Below, piece by piece: positions 871 to 26,116 of a stretch of 35,894 bases of DNA; position 1 is the first letter of the stretch; every line of letters starts with the position of its first letter. Location of the stretch: positions 1 to 35,894 of the IMG/VR virus record IMGVR_UViG_3300006923_000069; one strand, written 5' to 3'. Position numbers and translations under genes: made by a program. This DNA comes from a virus. Under the pieces are notes generated by a model. It was given only the letters and a program-made list of their open reading frames with translations. It was not told the DNA's origin and did no database searches.

Positions 871-2316
871 TTATTCTTTAAGTTCTCGAAAGGTTCTGTG
901 AAAATAGCCAGATATTGAACGTTCCCGACTCTCTCTTCGGCGCCTTTCTTTGTTCCACTTTGTGAACGAAACTGAGATTTTTTTCGGATAAAGATCAAGT
1001 CTTCTGCCGTCCTGATTGAACATATTGATTTCTGCTTTCTTAGCCTCATCAAATTCGGTATAGAAATATTTCTCTTTACCAGTTGATGAGAGGTGACCAT
1101 GACCATACCCAGTTTTCTTTATTTTCTCCAAAAGAGCCGCAACTCTGTCTTCCTCTTTTTGATCGGGCCATGCTTCTATTCTAGCTAAGCGGCGATCTTC
1201 CAAATTTCTTTTTATCTCTTCCTTTCGCTCATATCTTTGACGGAATAGTTTATCTCTCTCTTCTTGTTGAGCCACGAACTCTTCTTCCGTTCCCAGACTC
1301 TCAAGGTGTTGCTCCAAGGACCCTATTCTTTCTATGATATTGTTATAAATGACCCTTGTGTCTTCTAGAAGAGATTCCCAAAGAATTCTTTTTTCAAGAT
1401 AAGGATTCTTTTTGCTTATCTCTTCGACAGTGTTGCCAAAGGCAGATAAGACCGTGTTTTTCCCCCACTCGGAAGCAAATGCTTCTTTGAAACAAACAAG
1501 ATCTTGTTCTAAATCTTTAATTTTCTTGTTGATAGACCTCATTGAAGAAATTAGTTTTGTTGCATCTCCTTGATAATAGGGACTTTCTGATCTCCGCTGT
1601 GGACTCAAATCATTCATAGCCTTTTGAACTCCATTTTTTAACTTTCTAATGTCGACATAAAGCGATTCTCTTTGAGCGCGAACTCTTCTTTCGTTTTCAG
1701 CAATAAAAACAGCAAGTGTGTTTGCCTCACCAAACACTTCCTCATGTATCTTGAGATTTTCTGCTATAGCCAATTCGTTGAGATAATAGTTGAAACCGTC
1801 GCCGGTTGTCATATATTCAAACTCCTCTTGGACCTTTTCTTTATGAGATTTTTTACGAATGTTCCAGTCGTTGTCATAGCCACGGTAGTCTGTTAAAGAC
1901 CCTATCTTTTCGTTCTTCCACACATCCCAAGAAGTAATCGCTGATTGCCTTCTTTCGGACCAACTAGCTTTGCGATACTTTTCATCACCATAAAAATTGC
2001 GTGTATTTGTTGATTCTGTGTTCGTTCTTTCGTAAAATTCCGGAAGATTCATGTTGCCTATGGCTATAGGAAAGCGCACCAACTTGCTATGGAATTTCTT
2101 TTGCTCTTCAAGATAGGCAATTGAGGCTTTGGTTTTTGCTACTTCCCATCGATATTGGATCAGCTCTGTGTCTTCTTTTATTTCTTCATAATCGAATTTT
2201 ACGGTAGCACCAGTTACTGGTTCGTAAACCGTATCATGAAGATTGCGTTGTGGCTTAGCTTCAAGGCGAAGCTCACGGTAGTTTGTGTAATGTTTGTTGT
2301 ATGAATTGTACGGCAT
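871..2316 (-). CDS. Large charged coiled-coil protein of unknown function, 481 aa
   Basis: No family recognised. It is strongly hydrophilic, rich in Glu, Lys and Arg. Long predicted helices run from about residue 190 to 400, including heptad-like stretches such as SINKKIKDLEQDLVCFKEAF and EERDKLFRQRYERKEEIKRN. The C-terminus is Arg-rich (KERRRRESRERS). There is no signal peptide and no membrane segment. I chose the ATG at 2316 (MPYNSYNKHY) because GGAGG lies 5 bases upstream; an in-frame TTG at 2328 overlaps that binding site and is unlikely. It is a single-gene unit with its own promoter (2427-2454) and a leader of about 100 nt that can fold. It could be structural, DNA-binding or host-directed. 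Confidence 0.8.
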   Translation of the reverse strand: MPYNSYNKHYTNYRELRLEAKPQRNLHDTVYEPVTGATVKFDYEEIKEDTELIQYRWEVAKTKASIAYLEEQKKFHSKLVRFPIAIGNMNLPEFYERTNTESTNTRNFYGDEKYRKASWSERRQSAITSWDVWKNEKIGSLTDYRGYDNDWNIRKKSHKEKVQEEFEYMTTGDGFNYYLNELAIAENLKIHEEVFGEANTLAVFIAENERRVRAQRESLYVDIRKLKNGVQKAMNDLSPQRRSESPYYQGDATKLISSMRSINKKIKDLEQDLVCFKEAFASEWGKNTVLSAFGNTVEEISKKNPYLEKRILWESLLEDTRVIYNNIIERIGSLEQHLESLGTEEEFVAQQEERDKLFRQRYERKEEIKRNLEDRRLARIEAWPDQKEEDRVAALLEKIKKTGYGHGHLSSTGKEKYFYTEFDEAKKAEINMFNQDGRRLDLYPKKISVSFTKWNKERRRRESRERSISGYFHRTFRELKE

Positions 2317-2348
2317 AGTATCCTCCAAGGTTGTTAATTCATTGTTAA

Positions 2349-2426: not shown

Positions 2427-2454
2427 ATTATAACACGTTTGCGTTATTTGTCAA
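2427..2454 (-). promoter_or_regulatory. Sigma70-type promoter for the 481-aa gene
   Basis: Minus strand TTGACA (2454-2449), 16-bp spacer ending in CGTGT, then TATAAT (2432-2427). It belongs to the window-wide promoter family and lies just after the methylase stop codon. Confidence 0.88.
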
Positions 2455-2463
2455 GTTTTTTTC

Positions 2464-3687
2464 TTAAAATATTTCACCAGTAAAATCAGCTGTAATGTCT
2501 TCTTCATCTACTTGCTCTCCCTTATCGATTACGATAACGTATTCGATGTTCTTCTTTTTCTTTGCATTCTCTGCTTTGTCTCCACCTGCTCCGATGCGGG
2601 ACATGACATGTCTATCATGTTCTTTTTGATGGAACTTGTAATCCTCATATTGTTTACATATGTCCTCCATGTCACTATACTTGATAAGACCCTCGTCTGA
2701 GTAAGAGAATACACAATATCTAACAGGAAGTCTGTCAATCAGTTGTTTGGTTGCTTCCAAGGCTGTGCGCTTTGAATACCAAGGGCTCTTCATTGATTTA
2801 TCCCAGTGCTCATTTGTCTTTTGCTTTACTCTGTCTATTCTTCTGTTGGTCTTGAGACTTACTTGTGGCTTGTCCCAACGAGCGATGCTGTCCCATATAT
2901 GATAGTACGTTGAGTAGTCTGCTGCTGTATATGGCGGATCAAGATAGGCAACCGATGCATTTGGATAAGTTAGTTTAAGAGCATCACCACATAGATGTTG
3001 TCCTTCCATACCTTCAATGCTTGGGATGGCAGTTAATACTAAGTCTTTATGTACCCTATCTGATTTCCAACCTTTAAGATAGGCTTGTTGAAGGCCTACT
3101 GTATTGTCCAGCTTGTCAAGTGCGAAGATAAGACAGGCAATGAGATAGGATTTTTCCCATGGCTCAATCTCCATGACTTCGATCTCCTCTCTTATTGCAT
3201 CTGCCTTGGCTCCGTTCTTCGGATGCCAGACTTTTATATTAACTGTCTCCTTCTCCATGGTGAAAGTCTTTGCTTTCTTTGTTTTCATTACTTTTTTACC
3301 TTCTTCTTCAACCTCTTCAGAGATCATATCATATACCTTCTTGTCGACTATTATATCAACATCACAATAATTGTTAGTCAACCAGTCTGCTTTTGGTGGG
3401 ACAAGGTTCAACTGATCTATATATTGTTGAAGGTACGATACCTCGCCATTATTGCATATAAACGCCTCAGAGTACACTTCAGAGGCCCAAGATAAGTCAC
3501 TAGTGGTAACATCATAACCTCTCATTTTGAGAGCCTGAGCGACCCTTGTCGTGCCTGTAAACACATCAATTACTTTCATATCTTCTTTATCTAAGTCATC
3601 AATCACTTGCATGATCAACGGCAATATCTTGCTTTTACTCCCTAGGTAACGAACACCATAGGTCGTGATTTTGTCTTCTTTATCCAT
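2464..3687 (-). CDS. D12-class (Dam-like) adenine-N6 DNA methyltransferase, 407 aa
   Basis: It transfers a methyl group from S-adenosylmethionine to adenine N6 in DNA. Diagnostic features: an N-terminal G-x-R-Y-L-G-S-K-S-K element (11-20) typical of the D12 class, an SAM-binding motif I variant (DVFTGTTRVAQAL, 41-53), and the catalytic DPPY (250-253) followed by an aromatic-rich stretch (YTAADYSTYYHIW). At 407 aa it is longer than Dam (about 280); the extra length is a charged insert at about residues 100-180, probably part of target recognition. The start at 3687 has AAAGGAGG and overlaps the upstream nuclease gene by 8 nt, so the two are co-translated. Methyltransferase class is secure. Whether it belongs to a restriction system or is a lone protective methylase is inferred from the neighbour. 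The recognition site cannot be read from sequence. Confidence 0.92.
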   Translation of the reverse strand: MDKEDKITTYGVRYLGSKSKILPLIMQVIDDLDKEDMKVIDVFTGTTRVAQALKMRGYDVTTSDLSWASEVYSEAFICNNGEVSYLQQYIDQLNLVPPKADWLTNNYCDVDIIVDKKVYDMISEEVEEEGKKVMKTKKAKTFTMEKETVNIKVWHPKNGAKADAIREEIEVMEIEPWEKSYLIACLIFALDKLDNTVGLQQAYLKGWKSDRVHKDLVLTAIPSIEGMEGQHLCGDALKLTYPNASVAYLDPPYTAADYSTYYHIWDSIARWDKPQVSLKTNRRIDRVKQKTNEHWDKSMKSPWYSKRTALEATKQLIDRLPVRYCVFSYSDEGLIKYSDMEDICKQYEDYKFHQKEHDRHVMSRIGAGGDKAENAKKKKNIEYVIVIDKGEQVDEEDITADFTGEIF

Positions 3688-4195
3688 AAATTACCTCCTT
3701 TATATTTTGTAGTTCTTTTTTATAGTTGTCAAAGCCCCAAATTATTTTTATTTTCAAGCCTTTTTGTTTTGCCTCTAAGCAAAATTCCTTATAAACCTCG
3801 ATGTCTTCTGCGGCGGAACCTGTGAATACATACCACAACCAGTTATCACCATCGTATACACCTTTCTCTATTTTCATCAAGTCATAGAATACTTTTTCTT
3901 CTGTTGTTCCATGTTTGTCTGAGTGTTTTTGCTCTAGGATGATGCCTCTTCCGCTTTTTGTAATTGGTATGAAACCATCAGAGACAAACTTTCTTTTCTT
4001 TCCTTTCGGAGTTGTTTGTCTCCACTCCTTGGGTGGTTCGTGATATCTCCTACCCCATTCTGATATTCCGTGGTCTTCAAAATCTTTTTTAAGTTTTAAA
4101 AAAGAAAAGCCAACAGACTCTGTTATACTCGCTAGCATCTTCTCTGATTTGGTACCAGATACTGCTGCACCATGATTATGTTTCTCTTTACTCAT
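3680..4195 (-). CDS. Probable PD-(D/E)XK type II restriction-like endonuclease, 171 aa
   Basis: Likely a site-specific DNA endonuclease. A PD-(D/E)XK core can be read: Asp73 (SDGFIPI), a short hairpin, then ILEQKHSD with Glu88-x-Lys90. The His after the catalytic Lys recalls the EAKHQG element of EcoRI-type enzymes. A following helix (TTEEKVFYDLMKI) and a later strand (LWYVFTG) fit the fold. The N-terminus is basic and could contact DNA. The start at 4195 has GGAGG. The gene overlaps the D12 methylase downstream by 8 nt, and both run from the promoter at 4220-4247, the gene order of a compact type II restriction-modification pair. The motif is visible; target specificity and the restriction role are inference. 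Alternatives are a host-genome-degrading nuclease or a repair nuclease. Confidence 0.65.
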   Translation of the reverse strand: MSKEKHNHGAAVSGTKSEKMLASITESVGFSFLKLKKDFEDHGISEWGRRYHEPPKEWRQTTPKGKKRKFVSDGFIPITKSGRGIILEQKHSDKHGTTEEKVFYDLMKIEKGVYDGDNWLWYVFTGSAAEDIEVYKEFCLEAKQKGLKIKIIWGFDNYKKELQNIKEVIYG

Positions 4196-4219: not shown

Positions 4220-4247
4220 AATATAACACGTTTTCTTATTTTGTCAA
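4220..4247 (-). promoter_or_regulatory. Sigma70-type promoter for the nuclease-methylase pair
   Basis: Minus strand TTGACA (4247-4242), 16-bp spacer ending in CGTGT, TATATT (4225-4220). The -35 box is also the end of the upstream 56-aa gene (codons TTG ACA AAA TAA). Confidence 0.87.
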
Positions 4248-4406
4248 ATATTTTTTTATATATTTTTTCTCAACCCACATTGGGCGATCACAAGTTGTCC
4301 ATAAGATCTTCATGACTTTCCACTCATTACGGTAATCAATGATGATCCCCAATGGTTCATTTGCTAGTGCATATTGCACTAATTCTCCTATCCTAAAAGT
4401 GACCAT
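4236..4406 (-). CDS. Small SH3-like protein, 56 aa
   Basis: A short ORF beginning MVTFRIGELVQYAL, with a central GIIIDYRNEW and a C-terminus RPMWVEKKYIKKYLTK. The opening F-x-I-G-E-L-V, the G-I-I-I strand and the W-V-x-K-K-Y tail resemble small phage proteins with an SH3/KOW-like barrel; comparable elements occur at 12285-12557, 13175-13480, 13881-14315 and 18565-18846. The ATG at 4406 has only a weak site (GGGA), but the gene overlaps the dnaE stop by 19 nt, so coupling is likely. A GTG further in has a better site (AGGAGA) but would remove the family-defining N-terminus. The last codons contain the -35 box of the next promoter. Confidence 0.7.
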   Translation of the reverse strand: MVTFRIGELVQYALANEPLGIIIDYRNEWKVMKILWTTCDRPMWVEKKYIKKYLTK

Positions 4407-7400
4407 GCGATATCAACGTTCCCATAAGTACTAAAACCCCAGTCTAATGAATACTTTGGCTTTAGCATATACGGTCTATTGGTATAGATCACATCCTTAT
4501 CGGGATTCACAGACCAACAACGTATCCTAGTTTCAACAGAGTTAGAATCAATAAGAGTAATCATAAAGTAGTGCTTACCATTACGAGTCTTCTTCTTCTC
4601 AACCTTTCGAGGAATAGCCCAACAGATTTGTAAGTCGGGGTCATACTCTGAGATAGGAGGGACGAACTTCTCTTCTAGTCTGTTCTGTATATGATTGGTC
4701 ATAACCATTGAGATAGGGAAGATACCAGTGAGACTTGCATAGTGTTCTATCTTCTCCTCTTGGGTAAATGAACCCTCGGGACGATACTTTTCAATGTTCT
4801 CATCTAGTTTCTTCTTAGTTCTCGGCTTGTCGACACATACGGCAGACCAGAAGTGTCTGTCACCTGTGAAACGTTCATCCACCAAATCATCTAATGCGCC
4901 TGCTCTACACAGAACATCAAATGCTTTCTTGTTCAGCTTGTTGTACTTAACCTCGGAATGAAATAGCATCTCTTCGACAGTATTGAACGGCCGATGAAGA
5001 AGTATCTGCTCAAAGGCAGAGTCACCAAGGCCCTTGATACCAGTCAACGGAGCGATGAGTGTCTCATCATCTTCAATACGCCAAGTATCCTCTGAATAGT
5101 TTACGTGCAACGGCTTGATCTTATAACCATGTTGCTTAGCAAGGTTGATTGCCTTCTCCTTACGAGACTCTGGTTCCTTATCCAAAAATGAAGCCGTCCA
5201 TTCCGTTTGGAAATAGGTACAGAGCCAAGCACATTGATAAGAGATCACAGAGTAAGAGACAGCGTGAGACTTGTTGAAGCCATACCCAGAAAAATACTCA
5301 AAGGTTTGCCATAGTCTCCCAGCGGCATGCTTATCAATACCATGACCAACACAACCACGAATGAACTTGGTATGTATCTTGTCTTTGACCTCAAAGCCTT
5401 TGCCAGTTCCTTTCTTGGTTAAGATCTTACGAAGTAGATTTGCCTCATCCATTGTGATTCCATCACCAAGACGATAAGCCAACATAGCTATCTGCTCTTG
5501 GAAGATAAGGAAACCATGTGTCTCTTTGGTTATTTCTTCGATGATTGGGTGAAGATACCGCACACTTGATGGGTCTTCAACTGCCTCAATATAAGACTTA
5601 TCAACACCAGCCGATAAAGGACCGGGACGATAGATAGAAGTGATAGCAGAGAGGTCAATGATAGACTTAGGTTTGGCTTGCTTAGCAAAGCGCTGGGCTC
5701 CATTCTCTGTGAACTGAAAGATACCAATCCACTTACCGTCTTCAAAGATAGTCTCATAGACTGCTTGGTCATTGAGATCAATCGTATCCGGATGGAGCTG
5801 CTCGTCATAAAACTTTTTAATGTCCTCAAACGTTGGGTTCTCGATACCATGGTGACGACGAAGGATCTTACCAATACAGTCCTCAATCATACGAAGAGTC
5901 GATAAGCCAAGTATATCAAATTTGATAAAGCCCATTGGTTCAAGTTGTCGAACGTTTTGGCCCTCAGACCACGGAGTCTGTCTGACTCCTTTGGACGAGA
6001 TAAGGGGCATAAAGCGGTCTAAACCTTCACCGACCACAACACCACCAGCGTGACGAGAACAAGACCTGTAAGAACCTTGTAGAGCCTCGCAGTGACTTTG
6101 AACGTCTGGGTACTTCTTGAAGAACTTCTGAAGAGAATCAGAGAATTCTATGACTTCATTAAATGTTGGAGTATACACGCCGGCCTTGATACCGTGCTTC
6201 TTCTTTGCAAGAGGTGTTGCCTCTGCCATCATTTTGCCAGTAACAGCATTGACTTCGATGAACGGAATCTCATAGAACTTTGATATGTCCTTGATAAGAG
6301 AGCGTAGTTGCAGAGTATTCCAGTTAGAGATGGGAACAACAGTTGAATTTCCCCATTGTTCAATCAAGATGTCCTTGAGAGTCATCGGGTCAGATACATC
6401 ATAATCTATGTCAGGATAATCCGTAGCATCTGATCGAAGGAAACGGGAGAATAATAGTCCATAAGCAATAGGATCGATTTGAGTGATGCCCAGAGCATAA
6501 GCGACCAGAGAACCAGCCGCAGAACCTCTACCGGGGCCTGAAAGTTGTACTTCATTTGTTTTATCCGAAATAGCTTTCATTGTAAGAAAGTATTTTGAGA
6601 AACCACGGTCAGCGATTACCTTTAACTCATGCTTAAGTCGCTCCTCATACTCGTATATAGTCGAGCGAGACTTCGTTTGCTTGCTCATTAAACCTTTTTT
6701 CCTAAGAAGAGAGAACAAACCCTCGGACGCAAGTCGTTCGAGATAAGTGTCTTCCTCATATCCAGCAGGGACAACGAAGTCCGGAAGACGAACAGTTGTG
6801 TCGGGCAAGAAGTCCTCGCATCTCTCAAACGCAATGTGACAAGACTCTTCAATAGAGTCTCGAACCATGTCGTCATCATATTCAACACCACACTTCTCAG
6901 AATATTTCTTGTAAGACTCCCACATGTCGTCTCCGTTCTTTGGGTAGAGTTCAAATTCTAGGTCTTCCCTCGCCTCGGGGAATTCGCCCATCCATTCGGG
7001 CTTGCCTTTGCCAATCCAACCAAGACGTTTGTATAGTTCTCGGTGCTCCCAAGCATCAGGATTGGGATAGTGAGAGTCAGCAGTTGATACTAACTTCATA
7101 TCGAATTCGTCAGCAATTTGAACAATATATCGATTGAGTTCATGCTGTTCGGGTACACTGTTCCATTGTAATTCACCATACCAACGATCACCGAAGATAT
7201 CTTGCATTTTGCGAGTAGTCTCTCGCATGCAGTCCAAGATGGCTTCCTCACCTTCTTCACGGTTCTGCCAGTAGCAACCAGCATACACTCCGCCAAGACA
7301 AGCAGACATAGCAATGACGCCCTCATTATATTTAGCGAGGAGATCATAGTCCATGCGTGGTTTGCGATAGTAATAGTCTCCATGATAAGATTCCGAGACC

Positions 7401-8170: not shown

Positions 8171-8198
8171 AATATAACACGTTTATAATATTTGTCAA
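8171..8198 (-). promoter_or_regulatory. Sigma70-type promoter for dnaE
   Basis: Minus strand TTGACA (8198-8193), 16-bp spacer ending in CGTGT, TATATT (8176-8171). The leader is about 30 nt to the dnaE ATG. Confidence 0.87.
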
Positions 8199-9462: not shown

Positions 9463-9490
9463 ATTATAACATGTTTGTAATATTTGTCAA
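9463..9490 (-). promoter_or_regulatory. Sigma70-type promoter for the ParB-like gene
   Basis: Minus strand TTGACA (9490-9485), 16-bp spacer ending in CATGT, TATAAT (9468-9463). It lies between the PiT stop and the ParB-like start. Confidence 0.88.
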
Positions 9491-26088: not shown

Positions 26089-26116
26089 AATATAACACGT
26101 TCTCATTATTTGTCAA
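26089..26116 (-). promoter_or_regulatory. Sigma70-type promoter for the 30-aa peptide and HNH-like gene
   Basis: Minus strand TTGACA (26116-26111), 16-bp spacer ending in CGTGT, TATATT (26094-26089). It restarts transcription straight after the recombinase terminator. Confidence 0.88.

What the first reader, a model, noticed from the sequence alone, without database searches (positions are those of the whole stretch)
2464..4195. Phage-borne nuclease/methylase pair resembling a type II restriction-modification system
A 171-aa protein with a readable PD-(D/E)XK core (Asp73, Glu88-x-Lys90, then His as in EcoRI-type enzymes) overlaps by 8 nt a D12-class adenine methylase. Both share one promoter. 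Phages often carry lone methylases for protection, but a paired nuclease is unusual. It could attack competing phages or host DNA while the phage DNA is methylated. The nuclease motif is seen; the partnership and specificity are inferred.
Basis: partly seen in the sequence, partly recalled or inferred. Interest (0 to 1): 0.6.

Follow-up and report, generated by a model that had tools for sequence, protein, structure and literature searches.

The report
Viral nuclease-methylase pair, restriction-modification-like
This virus carries a small DNA-cutting enzyme and a DNA-marking enzyme as one two-gene unit, and related viruses keep that unit while changing the cutter, which is what one expects of a viral restriction-modification weapon that spares the virus's own marked DNA; no enzyme activity has been measured.

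Summary
A 171-aa ORF (3680-4195, -) overlaps by 8 nt a 407-aa D12 adenine-MTase gene (2464-3687, -). One strong promoter precedes the pair and the next lies behind it. The 171-aa protein belongs to an uncharacterised, almost purely viral family (phrog_11134). Across 25 sequences Asp73, Glu88 and Lys90 are invariant, and AlphaFold2 (pLDDT 87.7) gives a PD-(D/E)XK fold like restriction enzymes.

The partnership is real in evolution. 30 of 36 nuclease loci with enough sequence have a D12 MTase directly downstream, of two subclasses that follow the nuclease tree. Conversely, all 19 readable loci of this MTase have a nuclease-like gene directly upstream: 11 the 171-aa type, 8 an unrelated ~300-aa gene with its own D...ExK signature. 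MTases 84-90% identical carry nucleases only 43% identical. Close pairs are under purifying selection.

Best reading (0.66): a virus-encoded type II-like R-M cassette that cuts DNA lacking the MTase's mark (host and/or competing phage). Cleavage, recognition site and methyl-blocking are untested. Main rival: a Holliday-junction-type nuclease. Phage R-M systems are known but rare; the nuclease family and its exchange appear new.

The parts
3680..4195 (-). Small PD-(D/E)XK nuclease gene (nuc1 family, phrog_11134), 171 aa; predicted restriction component
   Evidence: invariant D73, E88, K90 in 25 homologues
2464..3687 (-). D12-class N6-adenine DNA methyltransferase gene, 407 aa (not Dam subfamily); predicted modification component
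   Evidence: DPPY motif; 82-83% identical in L006/L007
3680..3687 (-). 8-nt overlap of nuclease stop region and MTase start (coupled translation unit)
   Evidence: overlaps of 4-10 nt recur in many homologous loci
3977..3979 (-). codon of Asp73 (first acidic residue of the PD-(D/E)XK core)
   Evidence: invariant in A6
3926..3934 (-). codons of Glu88-x-Lys90 (catalytic E-x-K)
   Evidence: invariant in A6
4220..4247 (-). sigma70-type promoter of the pair: TTGACA-N16-TATATT with TG extension
   Evidence: similar sequences before the nuclease in L006, L007, L013, L002
4200..4205 (-). ribosome-binding site GGAGGA of the nuclease
   Evidence: sequence
3693..3699 (-). ribosome-binding site AGGAGGT of the MTase, inside the nuclease gene
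   Evidence: sequence
2427..2454 (-). next promoter (TTGACA-N16-TATAAT), belonging to the downstream 485-aa gene; marks the end of the two-gene unit

Best explanation
The two genes form a virus-encoded, type II-like restriction-modification cassette. The D12 MTase puts N6-methyladenine at its target site in the phage's DNA. The 171-aa PD-(D/E)XK protein (probably acting as a dimer, like other small enzymes of this fold) cuts DNA in which that site is unmethylated, that is, DNA of the host and of competing phages in the same cell. Because packaged phage DNA arrives methylated from the previous cycle, and hemimethylated daughters stay protected, the nuclease gene can be transcribed first from a shared promoter without harming the phage. 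Shown: the genes, overlap, promoter-like sequences, predicted fold, invariant catalytic residues, recurrent linkage, different nucleases in front of a nearly constant MTase, and purifying selection. Inferred: DNA cleavage, shared specificity, methyl-blocking, dimerisation, the target DNA and the timing.
For: Fold: AlphaFold2 model with pLDDT 87.7 and pTM 0.83. Its best structural matches are mostly PD-(D/E)XK enzymes, many of them restriction enzymes: BstEII Z 9.4 (131 residues, 3.3 A), BsaWI 8.0, PspGI 7.9, MunI 6.8, BsoBI 6.5, EcoRII-C 6.5. D73, E88, K90, E18, G96, E100, K101, D105 and K108 are invariant in 25 sequences. Linkage: 30 of 36 nuclease loci with at least 700 nt downstream have a D12 MTase starting within about 170 nt, many with 4-10 nt overlaps. 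This includes the isolated Synechococcus phage ACG-2014f, gp188-gp189. The MTase class (alpha-type or Dam-type) follows the nuclease tree: 3 changes against 9.5 in shuffles, none of 200 as low. No solitary MTase: of 19 relatives of this MTase with readable upstream sequence, 11 have nuc1 and 8 have an unrelated ~300-aa gene with D...ExK. Exchange is nested in the MTase tree: L053 (nuc2) lies within a clade otherwise of nuc1 at 100/99 support. Faster nuclease: MTase 84-90% identical with nuclease 43% (window/L006, L006/L007); 87% with 39% (L013/L018). Selection: dN/dS of close nuclease pairs 0.07-0.15.
Against: No nuclease activity, recognition site or methyl-sensitivity is shown. The fold class also covers Holliday-junction resolvases (Hjc Z 6.1), mismatch endonucleases (EndoMS 6.2) and SfsA (6.9), and the tool warns that Z under 8 may be only a common arrangement. 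Foldseek alone gave no PDB hit below E 1e-3. No REase profile in Pfam or PADLOC reaches significance; Pfam PDDEXK_11 is weak (6 of 25 members, best E 6.9e-5; the two matching members seen one by one were below the cut-off). Two nuclease lineages have no MTase next to them: L032/33/40-43 and L019. No clear palindrome avoidance points to a site in the window. The linked genes sit among replication and recombination genes, which would also suit a repair role.
Confidence: 0.66

Rival explanations
1. The nuclease is a Holliday-junction resolvase or other recombination/repair nuclease of the PD-(D/E)XK fold that happens to lie next to a methylase in the replication module.
For: Hjc, MUS81, EndoMS and SfsA are among the structural matches. 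Small size. Neighbours are DNA polymerase III alpha, an SSB-like gene and a UvsX/RecA-like gene. Iyer and colleagues read other uncharacterised REase-fold phage proteins as resolvases (PMC7824862). Two lineages lack an adjacent MTase.
Against: A resolvase has no reason to follow the MTase class, to overlap the MTase gene in unrelated phages, or to be replaced in front of the same MTase by an unrelated ~300-aa D...ExK gene. It diverges far faster than its neighbour.
Confidence: 0.14
2. A methyl-directed nicking system like MutH with Dam: the nuclease nicks the unmethylated strand of newly replicated phage DNA to direct repair or recombination.
For: The partner MTases in the other nuclease clade pass the NCBIfam Dam cut-off in 6 of 7 records tested. 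PD-(D/E)XK fold.
Against: The window's own MTase is not in the Dam subfamily (14 bits against a cut-off of 115). No MutS or MutL homologue was looked for or noticed.
Confidence: 0.08
3. The pair serves only to degrade host DNA and supply nucleotides, as in chloroviruses, rather than to exclude competitors.
For: Chlorovirus R-M enzymes degrade host DNA (PMC7253447). The window phage carries a ribonucleotide reductase, so nucleotide supply matters to it.
Against: Marseillevirus R-M does not degrade host DNA and its enzymes could instead cut other marseilleviruses' DNA (PMC7253447). Nothing in the sequence separates the two targets. This is a variant of the main explanation.
Confidence: 0.07
4. 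Chance adjacency of an orphan protective MTase and an unrelated small gene.
For: Solitary MTases are the rule in phages (PMC4176335).
Against: Recurrent linkage in at least three phage lineages and no solitary case among 19 loci.
Confidence: 0.02

Closest known systems
Type II restriction-modification systems (PD-(D/E)XK REase plus D12 m6A MTase)
   Same: Adjacent small nuclease and D12 MTase genes in one operon; PD-(D/E)XK fold with structural matches to BstEII, BsaWI, PspGI and MunI; MTase matches PADLOC type II MTase profiles
   Different: Carried in the replication module of phage genomes; nuclease family matches no REase profile in Pfam or PADLOC; specificity unknown; nuclease exchanged in front of a nearly constant MTase
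Chlorovirus and marseillevirus R-M systems (CviAI; mel_015/mel_016, GATC)
   Same: Virus-encoded m6A MTase with an adjacent REase that standard domain search did not recognise; used against host DNA or competing viruses (PMC7253447)
   Different: Eukaryotic giant viruses; the nuclease family is not shown to be related; GATC specificity there, unknown here
Synechococcus phage ACG-2014f gp188-gp189
   Same: Homologous nuclease (about 30% identity over full length) directly upstream of a D12 adenine methylase
   Different: The MTase is Dam-like rather than of the window's type; both proteins carry only generic annotation; no function reported in the papers found here
Jumbo-phage Mom enzymes fused to REase-fold domains
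   Same: A modification enzyme coupled to a REase-fold nuclease and proposed to attack host or superinfecting-phage DNA (PMC7824862)
   Different: Different modification chemistry (adenine momylation) and one fused protein
REase-fold Holliday-junction resolvases (archaeal Hjc; phage RecB-family REase-fold proteins)
   Same: Fold class and size; Hjc Z 6.1
   Different: No MTase partner in the definition; structure-specific rather than sequence- and methyl-specific

Membership tests
Type II R-M system | Separate nuclease and DNA methyltransferase genes, adjacent and co-transcribed | tested here: met
   8-nt overlap and one promoter-like site before the pair; adjacency recurs in 30 of 36 loci; transcription itself not measured
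Type II R-M system | The modification enzyme is a DNA methyltransferase | tested here: met
   PF02086 E 1.7e-24, PADLOC MTase_II E 4.8e-69, DPPY motif
Type II R-M system | The nuclease cuts at or near a specific DNA sequence | not testable with these tools
   needs biochemistry
Type II R-M system | Nuclease and MTase share the recognition sequence and methylation blocks cleavage | not testable with these tools
   only indirect: MTase class follows the nuclease tree
Known REase families (Pfam, PADLOC profiles) | Nuclease matches a known REase family profile | tested here: not met
   no PADLOC hit; Pfam DpnII-MboI E 0.14 in one member only; REBASE was not available
PD-(D/E)XK nuclease superfamily | D ... 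(D/E)xK catalytic residues conserved | tested here: met
   D73, E88, K90 invariant in 25 sequences
PD-(D/E)XK nuclease superfamily | Core alpha/beta fold of the superfamily | tested here: met
   AF2 pLDDT 87.7; 128 PDB chains with Z of 5 or more, the top rows mostly PD-(D/E)XK nucleases; a prediction, not a solved structure
EcoRI-type enzymes | E-x-K followed by His | tested here: not met
   the residue after Lys90 is H, N, Y, G or A across the family
Hjc-like Holliday-junction resolvases | Cleavage of four-way junctions | not testable with these tools
   fold similarity only (Hjc Z 6.1)
Dam subfamily MTase (partner in the window) | Score above the TIGR00571 cut-off | tested here: not met
   14.4 bits against 114.85; Dam-like partners exist in the other nuclease clade

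The most novel reading that the evidence does not exclude
Tailed phages carry an unrecognised class of R-M cassettes in their replication modules. A slowly evolving adenine MTase acts as a fixed shield, while at least two unrelated nuclease families are exchanged in front of it. The MTase then confers protection against several nucleases, and the nucleases act as changeable weapons against other phages and host DNA.
Probability: 0.4. Interest if true: 0.72.

Novelty: new variant of a known kind. Interest (0 to 1): 0.57.

Why it matters
Complete R-M systems are thought to be nearly absent from phages (nine in 831 genomes, PMC4176335). Searches that rely on known REase profiles cannot see the nuclease families found here, so that figure may be too low. 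If the pair works as proposed, phages of several lineages carry a methylation-coded weapon for phage-phage competition or host takeover, as some giant viruses do. The isolated Synechococcus phage ACG-2014f carries a homologous pair, which makes the question testable. The nuclease family would also be a new source of small, methyl-sensitive endonucleases.

Tried and rejected
Sequence search of PDB chains with the single protein and with the 25-member profile: nothing relevant. MTase profile against PDB chains: nothing.

Recognition site from palindrome avoidance: in the window CGCG (0.32) and AGCT (0.64) are lowest, but the related genomes do not agree on one adenine-containing site; dropped. 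A lead to AATT from the annotation 'putative M.Tsp509I' of the Thermus phage phiLo MTase (29% identical) is too distant to use. phiLo_160, upstream of that MTase, is a helix-turn-helix protein, not a nuclease.

Fold search with the nuc2 model: only weak matches (HinP1I Z 4.1, HincII 3.4, Hjc 3.3), and four of its five models were poor, so nuc2 as a nuclease rests mainly on D...ExK and position.

Plasmids: no convincing homologue. nuc2 in phage and plasmid records: no match.

Paper searches found no study of this nuclease family or of ACG-2014f gp188.

Full report
Observation. The two ORFs, strand, coordinates and 8-nt overlap are as reported. The 407-aa ORF is a D12 adenine MTase (PF02086 E 1.7e-24; PADLOC MTase_II E 4.8e-69) and not of the Dam subfamily. 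The 171-aa ORF alone matches only phrog_11134, of unknown function. A promoter-like site TTGACA-N16-TATATT lies just before the nuclease (4247-4220) and the next, TTGACA-N16-TATAAT, just behind the MTase (2454-2427). The window has 17 sites of the pattern TTGACA-N14-20-TATANT against 0.31 expected, 16 of them on the coding strand. The MTase has its own AGGAGGT inside the end of the nuclease gene.

Surroundings. The record is a 35.9-kb viral contig with DNA polymerase III alpha, ribonucleotide reductase, DnaB-like helicase, exonuclease and UvsX-like recombinase genes. The pair lies behind the polymerase gene, with one 56-aa ORF between. A near-identical contig covers the region (L001, 99.98%).

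The nuclease family. tblastn against 50,697 phage records found only Synechococcus phage ACG-2014f gp188 (about 30% over the full length), which is followed directly by gp189, a DNA adenine methylase. Profile-based scans of viral contigs reached 38 loci in the widest scan. In the 25-member alignment D73, G74, E88, K90, E18, H8, G96, E100, K101, D105 and K108 are invariant. The residue after K90 varies, which removes the EcoRI-specific detail. Pfam PDDEXK_11 matched 6 of 25 members (best E 6.9e-5), though the two matching members seen one by one were below its cut-off. AlphaFold2 on this alignment gave pLDDT 87.7 and pTM 0.83, with strands and a helix around the motif as expected for the superfamily. 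Structural alignment listed mostly PD-(D/E)XK enzymes: BstEII Z 9.4, Cdn1 8.7, BsaWI 8.0, PspGI 7.9, Can2 7.4, MunI 6.8, BsoBI 6.5, EcoRII-C 6.5, Hjc 6.1, FokI 6.0. The fold class is therefore well supported; the kind of nuclease cannot be read from the fold. Only one homologue turned up among 84,980 bacterial and archaeal species genomes, beside a terminase-like gene, so the family appears to be essentially viral.

Linkage. Of 36 nuclease loci with at least 700 nt downstream, 30 have a D12 MTase next, at -10 to about +160 nt (my tally from those listings). The exceptions are one group of near-identical contigs (L032/33/40/42/43) and L019. The contexts differ: behind DNA polymerase III alpha (window, L006, L007); between an SSB-like gene and a UvsX/RecA-like gene (many of L009-L018; these two names are my reading of the sequences); and among small genes in the Dam-like loci. 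Two MTase subclasses are used. The Dam-like ones pass the NCBIfam Dam cut-off in 6 of 7 records tested. MTase class follows the nuclease tree: 3 changes against a shuffled mean of 9.5, none of 200 as low (some long branches, so deep forks are unsure, and near-copies add to the clustering).

The reverse test. A scan with the MTase family gave 20 loci. One begins at the MTase and cannot be judged (L048). Of the other 19, 11 have the 171-aa type upstream and 8 have a different ~300-aa ORF in the same place (in L063 only its end is present). This second gene (nuc2) shares K116, G119, E122 and E154-x-K156, with an Asp some 8-14 residues before the Glu, a D...ExK signature of its own. It has no significant Pfam or PADLOC match. 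Its model is uncertain (best pLDDT 81, the other four about 60-65) and matches HinP1I and HincII only weakly. In the MTase tree the two nuclease types are intermixed (3 changes; L053 with nuc2 sits inside a clade otherwise of nuc1 with 100/99 support). No MTase of this family was found alone, in contrast to phage MTases in general (143 solitary against nine R-M systems in 831 phages; PMC4176335).

Rates. Window and L006: MTase 84%, nuclease 43%. L006 and L007: 90% and 43%. L013 and L018: 87% and 39%. L017 and L018: 91% and 94%. The nuclease is thus replaced, or diverges in jumps, while the MTase stays. For close pairs dN/dS is 0.07-0.15 for the nuclease and about 0.05 for the MTase (larger distances are saturated in dS and not used).

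Mechanism. Together these fit a restriction-modification cassette: a conserved protecting enzyme with exchangeable cutters. The order nuclease-then-MTase under one promoter is acceptable for a virus because its packaged DNA is already methylated (inference). What the weapon is aimed at is not decided. In chloroviruses such systems degrade host DNA; in marseilleviruses host DNA is spared and other viruses' DNA can be cut (PMC7253447). The strongest rival is a Holliday-junction-type nuclease, a reading given to other REase-fold phage proteins (PMC7824862). It explains the fold and the replication-gene neighbours but not the MTase linkage or the exchange.

Limits. There is no cleavage, specificity or methyl-blocking evidence. 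REBASE was not available. Viral contigs are fragments, and the pattern-based scans find only relatives with particular peptide stretches, so the counts may be biased. Motif avoidance gave no site.

Verdict. Observation confirmed; interpretation supported in its main claim; mechanism inferred, at about two in three.

Noticed in passing
L050:2061-2993, L053:2108-2995, L054:2018-2977, L057:2033-2992, L059:2105-2959: A second, unrelated ~300-aa gene with D...ExK sits in the nuclease's place before the same MTase family; no significant Pfam or PADLOC match.
   Followed up: partly
window, 16 sites on the - strand, e.g. 8171-8198, 9463-9490, 26089-26116: A strong repeated promoter-like sequence (TTGACA, 16-17 nt, TATAWT, often with AACGTGTTATA) before many genes; 17 sites against 0.31 expected.
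   Followed up: partly
window 4236-4406 (-) and L006:4096-4269, 4828-4998: A 56-57-aa ORF lies beside the pair; in L006 a second, similar-looking one lies between nuclease and MTase.
   Followed up: no
L032, L033, L040-L043: The nuclease occurs without a D12 MTase on the contig, followed by a helicase-like gene, with catalytic residues intact.
   Followed up: partly
L019 (WOR-3 MAG): The only homologue found in a cellular genome assembly, beside a terminase-like gene; probably viral sequence in the MAG.
   Followed up: partly
Dam-like loci L020, L021, L029-L031, L035, L037, L039: AGCT, CCGG and GGCC occur at about 0.2 of expectation, suggesting avoidance of host restriction sites.
   Followed up: no
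L002 (ACG-2014f gp185-gp189): Two D12 MTases flank a 151-aa and a 961-aa hypothetical gene and the nuclease; the 961-aa gene overlaps the nuclease start.
   Followed up: no
L076:2853-4939 (Agrobacterium phage Atu_ph07): A distantly related MTase is followed with a 4-nt overlap by a 370-aa hypothetical gene, possibly another nuclease partner.
   Followed up: no
window 871-2328 (-): 485-aa charged protein of unknown function directly downstream of the pair with its own promoter-like site; only weak profile matches.
   Followed up: no
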